DNA of 24,402 bases from a virus, in IMG/VR virus record IMGVR_UViG_3300034352_000004, positions 1-24,402 of that record; one strand, 5' to 3'. The position numbers were made by a program, and so were the translations under genes. The notes under the pieces were generated by a model, which was not told the DNA's origin, did not search any database, and saw only the letters and a program-made list of their open reading frames with translations. Below, piece after piece: positions 22,229-24,402 of this stretch; the stretch's first letter is position 1, and each line of letters opens with the position of its first letter.

Positions 22229-22583
22229 GGACATTAATACAGAAGAAGATTATCAATCTGATGATTATATGGGTATTCATATAACCAAAGAGAACTATAC
22301 TTTCGTAGAGTCTGTAGATCAAGAGCAGTGGACTATTAGAATAAAGACAGGTGAATTTAAAAATACGTTTTATCAGTATGGTAAGATTAAGGTTCATGAA
22401 TCTGATGGTAAAGATCCTATACTCAAATTCTCTTATAAGATATTAGAATCCGATGGTGATATAGAATCCGTATCCGCTGACAGAAAGTTTCTTGATTACA
22501 TTTCTGCCATTCTAAAACATATACTAGAGGATAGTTTACTTAATGATCCAAACAACGATACTAAAGAACTTAATCCAGAATGA
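22227..22583 (+). CDS. Unknown acidic protein in gene 40 position
   Basis: 118 residues between uvsX and gene 41, where T4 has gene 40 (114 residues, head-vertex chaperone). Size and place agree, but I see no convincing sequence match, so no symbol is given. It is acidic, with a core that reads ENYTFVESVDQEQWTIRIKTGEF, KNTFYQYGKIKVHES and KFSYKILESDG, suggesting a beta-rich fold, and a C-terminal helix with FLDYISAILKHILED. The start ATG 22227 has AGGA at 22213-22216 ten bases before it and follows the uvsX stop closely, fitting coupled translation. Met15 (22269) is an alternative start for RNA made from the overlapping promoter. The 3' end overlaps gene 41 by 41 bases. Confidence 0.75.
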   Translation: MDINTEEDYQSDDYMGIHITKENYTFVESVDQEQWTIRIKTGEFKNTFYQYGKIKVHESDGKDPILKFSYKILESDGDIESVSADRKFLDYISAILKHILEDSLLNDPNNDTKELNPE

Positions 22584-23169
22584 TGAGTACACAAGACAGG
22601 TCATTCCATTCCTAAAGAATGAATACTTCGATTCTTCCCATCAATCTCTTTTTAAGCTGGTAACTGAATTTGTTAATAAATACAATTCACTACCTACTAA
22701 AGAAGCATTTGTTATCGAACTTGAGAATTATTCTGAAGAGATAAAGGATGTAGGGGAATTTACAGGTATCTTAGAATCAGTATTTCAACCACTTGATGAA
22801 GCTACAGATAAGAAATGGCTGCTTGACACTACAGAGAAGTGGTGTCAGGATAGGGCTATTCATATTGCCATTATGGACTCTATAGGTATCATAGATGGGC
22901 AATCTAAGGAGTTAACTAAAAATGCAATACCTGACATATTGTCTGACGCACTTGCCGTTTCCTTTGATAGGAATATTGGTCATGACTATCTCGATGCTTC
23001 TGCTAGTAGGTATGATTTCTATAATAGAGTCGAGAAGCGTGTACCATTTGATCTCGACTACTTTAACCAAATTTCTGGTGGCGGTCTTCCAAACAAAACC
23101 TTGAATATCGTAATGGCAGGATGTGTTCACCCGACCACGAAAGTAAGGATTAGATACCGGAAGAAGTAG
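22543..23169 (+). CDS. 41: Replicative helicase gp41, N-terminal part with intein N-fragment
   Basis: DnaB-type hexameric helicase that unwinds the fork. This gene gives 208 residues. Residues 1-193 are the helicase N-terminal domain and the start of the ATPase domain. ILKNLIQNDEYTRQVIPFLK, EYFDSSHQSLFKL and DILSDALAVSFDRNIGHDYLD match T4 gp41, and NKTLNIVMAG corresponds to T4 GTLNVLMAG just before Walker A. At this point a 15-residue intein N-fragment follows (CVHPTTKVRIRYRKK) and then a TAG stop. The Walker A loop is missing and is found in the gene at 23968. Full-length helicase therefore requires trans-splicing. The start lies within the preceding gene, with GAGGA at 22527-22531. The last 20 bases overlap the antisense endonuclease gene. 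Confidence 0.93.
   Translation: MIQTTILKNLIQNDEYTRQVIPFLKNEYFDSSHQSLFKLVTEFVNKYNSLPTKEAFVIELENYSEEIKDVGEFTGILESVFQPLDEATDKKWLLDTTEKWCQDRAIHIAIMDSIGIIDGQSKELTKNAIPDILSDALAVSFDRNIGHDYLDASASRYDFYNRVEKRVPFDLDYFNQISGGGLPNKTLNIVMAGCVHPTTKVRIRYRKK
23122..23166 (+). other. Split intein N-fragment (IntN), 15 residues
   Basis: Begins with Cys1 after the extein Gly. Cys1, Thr6 and Val8 agree with intein block A (C-x4-T-x-V). The fragment ends RYRKK, strongly basic, before a stop. Block B is not here but in the other fragment, which marks an atypical split near the intein N-terminus, as in AceL-TerL and VidaL inteins. Confidence 0.88.
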
Positions 23170-23836
23170 TTTTCTTTTTCTTACTCCAATGCACACCGAT
23201 TCTCCAAGTTGGGTTTGAATCGATAAAGAAGTTCCTTGCAGCTTCGGTATGAAACTTCTTAGTCTTAATACCGTTAGTTGCTGGTTTCTTCGCAGACAGT
23301 TTACCTGCTTTTTTGGCATGATCTTTGTCTTTGAAGGAACCTTGTTGATCTGTAAACTTAGGATTATTACCAGATTTAACAGATGCTATACCACCAAGGC
23401 GGGCTCGTTCTTTACGACCTTCAGGTGTAGACCAATAATGAAAAGTGTCTTTTGACCCTGATTTGCGTTGAGTTTCTAAAGCTTTGGCGGTCCAAGATGA
23501 GCGAAGTGCATCCCACTTAGGGTTATGGAATCCTATTTGATTGTCACGGCAATATTCACCGACTTTGCGTCTATATTCAGTTGTTAGATTAGCACCTAAC
23601 ATATGCATAGCTCTTAGGTCATTTGTCTGTCCGTGTATAAGGTAAAGTAAATGATGAGCAGTTATATGCTCTTGGACAGTAAGATATGTGTAGTTGGTTT
23701 CGACATCTTTACCACCCGAATGTTTAGGTTGTATATGATGTTTATGAAGACCAGAACCTGGTGCGTAATGCTTCTTGTCAGAGATGCCTTCAAGGCAGAT
23801 GCGGGTGTAGAGGTAGATATAAATAGAGTTATACAT
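23150..23836 (-). CDS. HNH homing endonuclease, antisense between the helicase halves
   Basis: Probable site-specific DNA endonuclease that spreads the fractured locus. The best start is at 23836 (ATG preceded by AAAAGGAA, 7 bases spacing), giving 228 residues; an open extension to 23998 lacks a good ribosome site. The HNH/beta-beta-alpha-metal motif is clear: HKHHIQPKHSGG (His33-His34), ETNYTYL (Asn48), VQEHITAHHLLY (His57, His61). The C-terminal half is basic and repetitive in character (RKERARLGG, DHAKKAGKLSAKK), typical of the DNA-binding modules of phage homing enzymes. It is the only minus-strand gene and is richer in G+C than its neighbours (55 of 120 bases at 23401-23520 by hand count, against 15 of 60 at 18901-18960 in gene 43), which points to transfer. 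Its stop overlaps the IntN end by 20 bases, tail to tail. Confidence 0.9.
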   Translation of the reverse strand: MYNSIYIYLYTRICLEGISDKKHYAPGSGLHKHHIQPKHSGGKDVETNYTYLTVQEHITAHHLLYLIHGQTNDLRAMHMLGANLTTEYRRKVGEYCRDNQIGFHNPKWDALRSSWTAKALETQRKSGSKDTFHYWSTPEGRKERARLGGIASVKSGNNPKFTDQQGSFKDKDHAKKAGKLSAKKPATNGIKTKKFHTEAARNFFIDSNPTWRIGVHWSKKKKTTSSGI

Positions 23837-23865
23837 TATCGATTCCTTTTTAATCGTTAGTGTTA

Positions 23866-23910
23866 GGATAGGGGAGATGTTTCTGCATCTTTCCTGTCCG
23901 ATTTTATTAT
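23866..23910 (+). terminator. Terminator-like hairpin between endonuclease and IntC gene
   Basis: In + strand RNA the arms GGATAGGGGAGATG (23866-23879) and CATCTTTCCTGTCC (23886-23899) pair over 14 positions, including three G-U pairs, with a 6-base loop. GATTTTATTAT follows. In minus-strand RNA the three G-U pairs become mismatches, so the structure is tuned for + strand transcripts coming from the helicase N-part. Confidence 0.65.
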
Positions 23911-23911
23911 G

Positions 23912-23940
23912 TTGACTTATAACATCTTTTATGTTATAAT
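23912..23940 (+). promoter_or_regulatory. Sigma70-type promoter for the IntC-helicase gene
   Basis: TTGACT (23912-23917), 17-base spacer, TATAAT (23935-23940), one base from consensus, directly after the hairpin. The predicted start is about 20 bases before the ATG at 23968, which has its own ribosome site. Confidence 0.85.
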
Positions 23941-23942
23941 AG

Positions 23943-23950
23943 TATTTATA
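23943..23950 (-). promoter_or_regulatory. Late-type promoter box for the endonuclease
   Basis: TATTTATA on the + strand reads TATAAATA on the minus strand, the exact late-promoter sequence, about 107 bases upstream of the endonuclease start. The endonuclease may thus be made late. One 8-base match in AT-rich DNA can be chance. Confidence 0.5.
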
Positions 23951-23967
23951 CAAATTGAGAGGTCTAA

Positions 23968-24357
23968 ATGGAAATAAATCAAAATAACTGGTGTTCACCA
24001 GAAACCGTAGCTATATCTAAGATAGATACGTTACTTAAAGAAGGATATGAGATTGAAGTTGATTCGCCTGATGGTTGGGTTGGTGTTAACTTCTATATCG
24101 ACAAAGGCGACTTCCAAGAATATATTCTAAGAATACCTGGATATGAAGATGTGCGATGTAATGCCGATCATCTATTCGAGACAACTGTAGGTTGGATTCC
24201 AGCATCAGGTAATCAGAATAAAGAACTCCACTTCCTAACTAAAGATGGCTTTAAGAAAGGTAAAATATACGAATCTGAGAAGATCATTCCTATTGTTGAT
24301 ATCAATGTAGAGCATAAGAATCATAGATATTATACCAATGATATATCATCTCATAAT
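23968..24357 (+). other. Split intein C-fragment (IntC), 130 residues
   Basis: Carries the rest of a mini-intein with no internal endonuclease domain. Block B is VRCNADHLFETTVGWIPAS, with His68 of the T-x-x-H motif kept but Asn65 where Thr is usual. Block F is DINVEHKNHRYYTNDI (His119). Block G is SSHN, ending with His129-Asn130 before Thr131. The first 35 residues are acidic (GYEIEVDSPDG), opposite in charge to the basic IntN tail. Confidence 0.92.
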
Positions 24358-24402
24358 ACAGGTGTCGGGAAATCTCTCTTTATGTGTCATGTAGCTGGTG
24401 GT
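23968..24402 (+). CDS. 41: Intein C-fragment fused to the ATPase part of helicase gp41, 3' end outside window
   Basis: Open frame of 145 codons running off the window. It starts at ATG 23968 after GAGAGG (23957-23962). Residues 1-130 are an intein C-fragment, followed by extein residues TGVGKSLFMCHVAGG, which match the T4 gp41 Walker A region (GVNVGKSLGLCSLAA). Joined to the other half after its MAG, this gives TLNIVMAG-TGVGKS, the complete P-loop. The +1 residue is Thr131, a proper nucleophile for trans-splicing with Cys1 of the other half. This gene has its own promoter and start, so it is a second gene and not a broken remnant. The remaining helicase motifs lie downstream of the window. 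Confidence 0.95.
   Translation, partial: MEINQNNWCSPETVAISKIDTLLKEGYEIEVDSPDGWVGVNFYIDKGDFQEYILRIPGYEDVRCNADHLFETTVGWIPASGNQNKELHFLTKDGFKKGKIYESEKIIPIVDINVEHKNHRYYTNDISSHNTGVGKSLFMCHVAGG

What the first reader, a model, noticed from the sequence alone, without database searches (positions are those of the whole stretch)
23122..23166. A 15-residue intein N-fragment, among the shortest natural ones
The N-fragment is only CVHPTTKVRIRYRKK. Most natural split inteins break at the endonuclease position and have N-fragments of about 100 residues; known atypical ones have roughly 16-25. Here the split comes just after block A, so block B sits in the C-fragment. The tail RYRKK is strongly basic while the C-fragment begins acidic, suggesting charge-guided association.
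Basis: partly seen in the sequence, partly recalled or inferred. Interest (0 to 1): 0.85.

Follow-up and report, generated by a model that had tools for sequence, protein, structure and literature searches.

The report
Very short split intein, endonuclease-fractured helicase
A phage DNA-helicase gene is broken in two by an endonuclease gene, and the two protein halves are probably re-joined by a VidaL-like split intein whose first piece is only 15 amino acids long, a length that equals the published natural record and is common in a large, apparently undescribed environmental phage family that goes down to 14.

Summary
Window 23122-23166 encodes CVHPTTKVRIRYRKK-stop, fused after MAG of a T4-like gp41 (DnaB-like) helicase. 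The partner starts at 23968 (130 aa) and ends ...SSHN|TGVGKS, so the intein bisects the Walker A motif. Predicted splicing restores MAG-TGVGKS, the sequence found in 73 of 73 intein-free relatives. It is a VidaL-type (S1-split) intein: best structure VidaL 6vgv, Z 21.5. It is neither unique nor a record: PolB16 OarG has a 15-residue natural N-fragment. I found 101 distinct homologues at this site; 89 split N-fragments are 14-23 residues (six of 14). Residues 1-14 are conserved and selected (pN/pS 0.20); everything after is unconstrained. An inserted homing-endonuclease gene, usually HNH and antisense, sits in the break. Inserts carry a conserved late-type promoter motif for the nuclease and a sigma70-type one for the C-half. 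Contiguous versions exist, some almost identical to split ones, and some split genes have lost the nuclease and kept the break. The charge-guided-association idea is weakened: contiguous relatives have the same basic N-strand and acidic remainder. Splicing was not tested.

The parts
22543..23121 (+). N-extein: N-terminal part of T4-like gp41 (DnaB-like replicative helicase), ends ...TLNIVMAG at the Walker A motif
   Evidence: PHROG 19 DnaB-like replicative helicase E 7.7e-40, match ends at residue 193, i.e. at the Cys1 junction
23122..23166 (+). Intein N-fragment CVHPTTKVRIRYRKK (15 aa); residues 1-14 are the conserved core
23167..23169 (+). Stop codon TAG ending the N-half
23150..23836 (-). 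HNH homing-endonuclease-like gene (228 aa), antisense, 3' end overlapping the N-fragment; homologous gene in most split relatives
   Evidence: PHROG 655 homing endonuclease E 3.7e-10; PF01844 HNH weak, below cut-off; aligned with relatives, GLHxHHIxPKHxGG motif; cluster 0; Mob-like HNH relatives in phages
23866..23899 (+). Terminator-like hairpin upstream of the C-half
   Evidence: consensus scan only
23912..23940 (+). Sigma70-type promoter-like site TTGACT-17-TATAAT (11 of 12) for the C-half
   Evidence: at least 10 of 12 in 56 of 71 loci with HNH homology against about 5% of shuffles
23943..23950 (-). T4-late-promoter-like TATAAATA for the antisense endonuclease gene
   Evidence: not significant in this window alone; exact in 56 of 65 antisense-nuclease loci against 3% of shuffles
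23957..23962 (+). Shine-Dalgarno-like GAGAGG before the C-half ATG
   Evidence: sequence
23968..24357 (+). Intein C-fragment, 130 aa, with block B (NADH), block F (HRYYT) and terminal HN
24358..24402 (+). C-extein start TGVGKSLFMCHVAGG (rest of Walker A); gene runs off the end of the record

Best explanation
A VidaL-type, class 1 (Cys1, His-Asn, Thr+1) mini-intein sits in the Walker A motif of a T4-like phage gp41 helicase. Its gene is fractured just after beta-strand 2 by an inserted HNH endonuclease gene on the opposite strand. The N-half is made as helicase N-domain plus a 15-residue tail (14-residue functional core). The C-half is made separately from its own start, probably from a sigma70-type promoter inside the insert. 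The 130-residue C-fragment is largely pre-folded as a Hint domain with a gap; the basic N-fragment strand docks into it, and trans-splicing joins MAG to TGVGKS, making an active helicase. The insert can be lost while the break stays. Shown by computation: the anatomy, homology, fold, conservation, empty and occupied sites, and conservation of promoter-like sites. Inferred: docking, splicing, promoter activity and homing.
For: Splice product equals the Walker A of 73 of 73 intein-free homologues. 101 distinct homologues at the same site, 83 split with partner found, 12 contiguous. Predicted structure of the contiguous relative L004: pLDDT 96.4; best PDB match VidaL, Z 21.5, rmsd 1.5 over 136 residues. 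The split falls in the loop between strands 7-13 and 20-25. The window C-fragment alone is modelled as a Hint domain with its first ~10 residues disordered. IntN codons 1-14 pN/pS 0.20, codons 15-16 pN about equal to pS. Catalytic positions (block B N..H, HRYYT, SSHN) invariant in the 24-row alignment. Insert homology: 71 of 83 loci have the same HNH family, 65 of them antisense.
Against: No splicing measured. The C-half of the helicase is cut off by the record end, so its integrity is unseen here (it is intact in L001, L002 and L005). Block B has N instead of the usual T. Most relatives (46 of 83) have no clear Shine-Dalgarno before the C-half ATG, although the window does. No isolate phage with this intein was found, only relatives under 60% identity (about 25-33% in the listed rows) in UvsX and terminase genes.
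Confidence: 0.9

Rival explanations
1. Sequence error or read-through: the stop at 23167 is false and the true N-fragment is longer or the intein is contiguous.
For: Contiguous homologues do exist (L003, L004, L128 and others).
Against: 22 stops in that frame before the C-fragment; an 800-nt insert with a homologous antisense nuclease in most relatives; stops at residue 14-23 in 89 distinct loci; no constraint beyond residue 14.
Confidence: 0.02
2. The insert is an intron removed from RNA, so the intein is contiguous in the protein.
For: Homing endonuclease genes often lie in group I introns, and phage introns interrupt conserved genes (established knowledge; PMC2988022).
Against: No group I or II match in the window region or in eight relatives. 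The nuclease ORF fills most of the insert on the antisense strand, leaving little room for an intron core. Ten split relatives have gaps of 112 nt or less, or overlapping reading frames.
Confidence: 0.03
3. A decayed, non-splicing intein in a dead helicase gene.
For: One relative (L236) has lost the catalytic C-terminal end of its C-fragment, so decay may happen.
Against: Purifying selection on the 14-codon core, conserved catalytic residues, intact frames on both halves in the window, helicase essential in T4-like replication (established knowledge).
Confidence: 0.05

Closest known systems
VidaL intein (PDB 6vgv, 6vgw; IntN 16 aa)
   Same: Best sequence (E 2.5e-14) and structural match (Z 21.5); Cys-dependent; S1 split site right after beta-strand 2; IntC begins with the same ...EEK-V... 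strand
   Different: About 29% identity; host gene and insertion site of VidaL not established here; IntN one residue longer
PolB16 OarG split intein (IntN 15 aa)
   Same: Same IntN length and S1-type split site (PMC10189870, PMC13014065)
   Different: Ser1, Ser+1 and a longer C-fragment (168 aa); distant fold match (8cpn/8cpo E about 2e-4)
AceL-TerL, GOS-TerL (S2 split; AceL-TerL IntN 25 aa)
   Same: Atypically short IntN
   Different: Split at S2, after the first helix (PMC13014065); host gene is terminase (from their names)
gp41-1 split intein
   Same: Same host protein family, Hint fold (6qaz, 6riz)
   Different: Different insertion site in the helicase and canonical late split (from established knowledge); a gp41-1-like fragment occurs as a second intein in L003
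Fractured genes with free-standing homing endonucleases (Dassa et al. 2009; mobE in phage Aeh1 nrdA)
   Same: Endonuclease gene between two halves of an essential phage gene
   Different: Here mostly HNH, antisense, splitting a mini-intein right after block A, with contiguous, occupied and nuclease-lost alleles side by side. The 2009 paper was not held in the library, so this comparison is from memory

Membership tests
Class 1 intein (Hint fold) | Cys/Ser at position 1, block B His, C-terminal His-Asn, Cys/Ser/Thr at +1 | tested here: met
   C1, N-x-x-H in block B (Thr replaced by Asn), SSHN|T; invariant in the 24-row alignment; Cys1 in all loci
Class 1 intein (Hint fold) | Hint fold | tested here: met
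   AF2 model of L004 matches PDB inteins, VidaL Z 21.5; window IntC alone matches VidaL E 2.5e-8
Split intein | Two separately encoded halves that ligate the exteins | tested here: inconclusive
   Separate coding shown; ligation not testable computationally
Atypically split, VidaL type (S1) | Short IntN ending right after beta-strand 2 | tested here: met
   Model strands E7-13 and E20-25; IntN ends at 15
Cysteine-less (PolB16) type | Ser1 and no catalytic Cys | tested here: not met
   Cys1 in all 101 loci of this family
Fractured gene with homing endonuclease | Endonuclease gene between the halves | tested here: met
   HNH-like ORF 23150-23836(-), PHROG 655 E 3.7e-10
Fractured gene with homing endonuclease | Endonuclease cuts the empty site and the insert homes | not testable with these tools
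   Only allele comparison was possible
T4-like gp41 helicase | DnaB-like replicative helicase with Walker A at the splice site | tested here: met
   PHROG 19 E 7.7e-40; 73/73 intein-free homologues read AGTGVGKS

The most novel reading that the evidence does not exclude
The insert is a mobile gene-fracturing cassette: a homing endonuclease gene, a late promoter for itself and a sigma70-type promoter for the downstream half, that invades the coding DNA of a contiguous mini-intein and converts cis-splicing into trans-splicing. The 14-residue N-fragment is the minimum that the fold tolerates. Break, nuclease loss and re-fusion then cycle in phage populations.
Probability: 0.35. Interest if true: 0.8.

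Novelty: new variant of a known kind. Interest (0 to 1): 0.57.

Why it matters
It gives dozens of natural, cysteine-dependent split inteins with N-fragments of 14-18 residues, useful for peptide synthesis and protein labelling, with a clear 14-residue core; 14 would be one below the published natural record. It also supplies near-identical contiguous, nuclease-occupied and nuclease-lost alleles, so the old question of how split inteins arise from and return to contiguous ones becomes directly testable.

Tried and rejected
Group I or II intron in the insert: no Rfam match. A SymR-like RNA match at 23831-23902 (31.7 bits against a cut-off of 61) did not recur in a focused search: treated as a chance hairpin. 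The late promoter in the window alone is not significant (7 found, 6.4 expected); only the family-wide position is. Charge-guided association as an adaptation to splitting: contiguous relatives have the same charges. N-fragments with no partner nearby (L202, L218, L225, L236) turned out to have variant partners. A search of 84,980 bacterial and archaeal genomes found none. A scan with the 37-row alignment failed for lack of conserved stretches. The tree of C-fragments is poorly resolved (11 starred branches of 85), so only the forced minimum of 3 cis/split changes is relied on. Dassa 2009 and Burton 2020 were not held. Whether VidaL itself lies in gp41 could not be checked.

Full report
OBSERVATION. 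The ORF 22543-23169(+) encodes the N-terminal part of a T4-like gp41 replicative helicase (PHROG 19 DnaB-like helicase, E 7.7e-40, match ending at residue 193), followed by CVHPTTKVRIRYRKK and TAG at 23167. The C-fragment starts at ATG 23968, preceded by GAGAGG, and ends ...DISSHN at 24357, followed by TGVGKSLFMCHVAGG up to the end of the record at 24402. The neighbouring ORFs (UvsX-like by Pfam; others recognised by eye as polymerase-, clamp- and capsid-like) fit a T4-like phage.

NOT CHANCE. Joining the exteins gives ...NKTLNIVMAG-TGVGKSLFMCH. In 73 of 73 intein-free homologous helicases from viral contigs the same stretch reads ...KTLNIALAGT/GVGKSLFMCH or a close variant. The intein therefore interrupts the Walker A motif exactly between G and T. 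Scans of viral contigs for the C-fragment and for the N-fragment as a DNA pattern gave, after removal of duplicates by 150 nt upstream plus the N-fragment, 101 distinct loci at this site (one further hit, L207, is in another gene): 83 split with the partner found, 12 contiguous, and 6 cut off by the contig end. The scans reached row or output limits, so these are lower bounds. A scan of bacterial and archaeal genomes found none, and among isolate phages only relatives under 60% identity (about 25-33% in the listed rows), in UvsX and terminase genes, were found.

LENGTH OF THE N-FRAGMENT. Among 89 split N-fragments the lengths are 14 (6), 15 (5), 16 (35), 17 (19), 18 (16) and 19-23 (8). Positions 1-14 are strongly conserved (C1, P4, T6 and R11 invariant); from position 15 on there is no consensus. 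Over 73 distinct 42-nt cores the pooled pN/pS is 0.20, whereas for codons 15-16 pN is about equal to pS. The functional core is thus 14 residues and the window has one extra lysine. The literature gives natural atypical N-fragments of 15-37 residues: PolB16 OarG 15 ('shortest characterized'), VidaL 16, AceL-TerL 25 (PMC10189870; PMC13014065). So 15 equals the published natural record and 14 would be one below it; shorter ones (11) are known as artificial splits (PMC13014065).

FOLD AND MEMBERSHIP. The C-fragment profile finds VidaL (6vgv, E 2.5e-14) ahead of gp41-1 (E 2.5e-7). The contiguous relative L004 is predicted with pLDDT 96.4; VidaL is its best match by Foldseek (E 3.1e-11) and by VIA-align (Z 21.5, rmsd 1.5 over 136 residues). 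In that model a strand runs from residue 7 to 13 and the next from 20 to 25; the natural N-fragments of this family end in or just after the loop between them. This is the S1 split position described for VidaL and PolB16 (PMC13014065). The window C-fragment modelled alone keeps most of the Hint fold but its first ten residues are disordered (pLDDT 46), and the strand next to the N-fragment is not formed; its best match is again VidaL. Catalytic positions are conserved.

WHAT BREAKS THE GENE. In the window an HNH-like homing endonuclease gene (PHROG 655, E 3.7e-10) lies antisense at 23150-23836, its 3' end overlapping the N-fragment. The same nuclease family is in 71 of 83 split loci (two, L210 and L218, only as remnants), antisense in 65 and sense in 6. 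Two loci carry other ORFs at the same place: L198 a GIY-YIG-like protein with NUMOD3 motifs, and L212 an unassigned ORF. Upstream of the C-half ATG, on the minus strand, TATAAATA occurs exactly in 56 of 65 antisense-nuclease loci against 3% of shuffles; late promoters drive several T4 homing endonuclease genes (PMC2988022). On the plus strand a sigma70-type promoter of at least 10 of 12 matches is present in 56 of 71 loci against about 5% of shuffles; in the window it is TTGACT-17-TATAAT at 23912-23940, after a terminator-like hairpin at 23866-23899. The loci are related to each other, so these fractions are not independent observations, and no promoter was tested.

HISTORY. Contiguous and split forms are interspersed on the C-fragment tree: at least 11 changes, of which at least 3 are forced by well-supported branches. 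L004 (contiguous) and L179 (occupied) are 98.3% identical over 1242 nt upstream, with an 845-nt insert as the difference. L128/L130 (contiguous) and L101/L104 (occupied) C-fragments are 98-99% identical. L174 and L201 are 99.7% identical there, and L174 keeps both ends of the insert, including the late-promoter-like site, with the nuclease deleted. L103 keeps a short stretch of an insert's left end, and its new C-half start codon lies in that remnant. The break can therefore outlive the nuclease. Whether the contiguous forms are ancestral or re-fused cannot be decided in general from these data.

CHARGE. IntN residues 1-14 carry +3.87 (split) and +3.50 (contiguous); the remainder -8.31 and -7.75. 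The window has +6 in its 15 residues (RYRKK alone +4) and -9 in the C-fragment. Complementarity is strong but is a property of the fold and did not arise with the split; it may still speed docking, which only kinetics can show.

VERDICT. A real, very probably functional, VidaL-type split intein: an ordinary member of a large and apparently undescribed environmental family. The family-level facts (14-residue core, natural 14-mers, a nuclease insert with two opposed promoter-like sites, and contiguous/occupied/lost alleles side by side) are more interesting than the single 15-mer. Splicing, docking, promoter activity and homing are inferred, not shown.

Noticed in passing
L003:6190-6310: A second intein C-fragment (...FFANDILTHN|SNSDPG), resembling gp41-1, follows a frame break further on in the same helicase gene, whose Walker A intein is contiguous.
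   Followed up: no
L236: The C-fragment has lost about 11 residues in frame (YYTNGxSSHNT in relatives), so the catalytic end and the +1 Thr are gone while the N-fragment and the nuclease gene remain; decay, recombination with an intein-free allele, or chimeric assembly.
   Followed up: partly
L001:3433-4224 and similar inserts: Many inserts hold an additional sense-strand gene (cluster 1 and singletons) between the N-fragment and the nuclease, without assigned function.
   Followed up: partly
L171, L190 (split) and L208 (contiguous): Split halves with 1 nt between stop and next ATG and no nuclease, next to a close contiguous relative; L154 and L183 have overlapping reading frames.
   Followed up: partly
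IntC start of L001, L002 and similar loci: 46 of 83 C-halves have no clear Shine-Dalgarno; in many, the late-promoter-like site for the opposite gene occupies that position. How they are translated is unexplained.
   Followed up: no
L119/L122/L123, L138, L160, L199, L211: The nuclease is in sense orientation here, and several of these have the shortest (14-15 aa) N-fragments.
   Followed up: partly
L207:1188: A similar N-fragment (CVHPDTIVNVRKKQVLQT) follows a different host protein sequence (NQIRIKIG).
   Followed up: no
window:23831-23902: Sub-threshold SymR-like RNA match (31.7 bits) antisense to the nuclease start; not reproduced in a focused search, probably a chance hairpin.
   Followed up: yes
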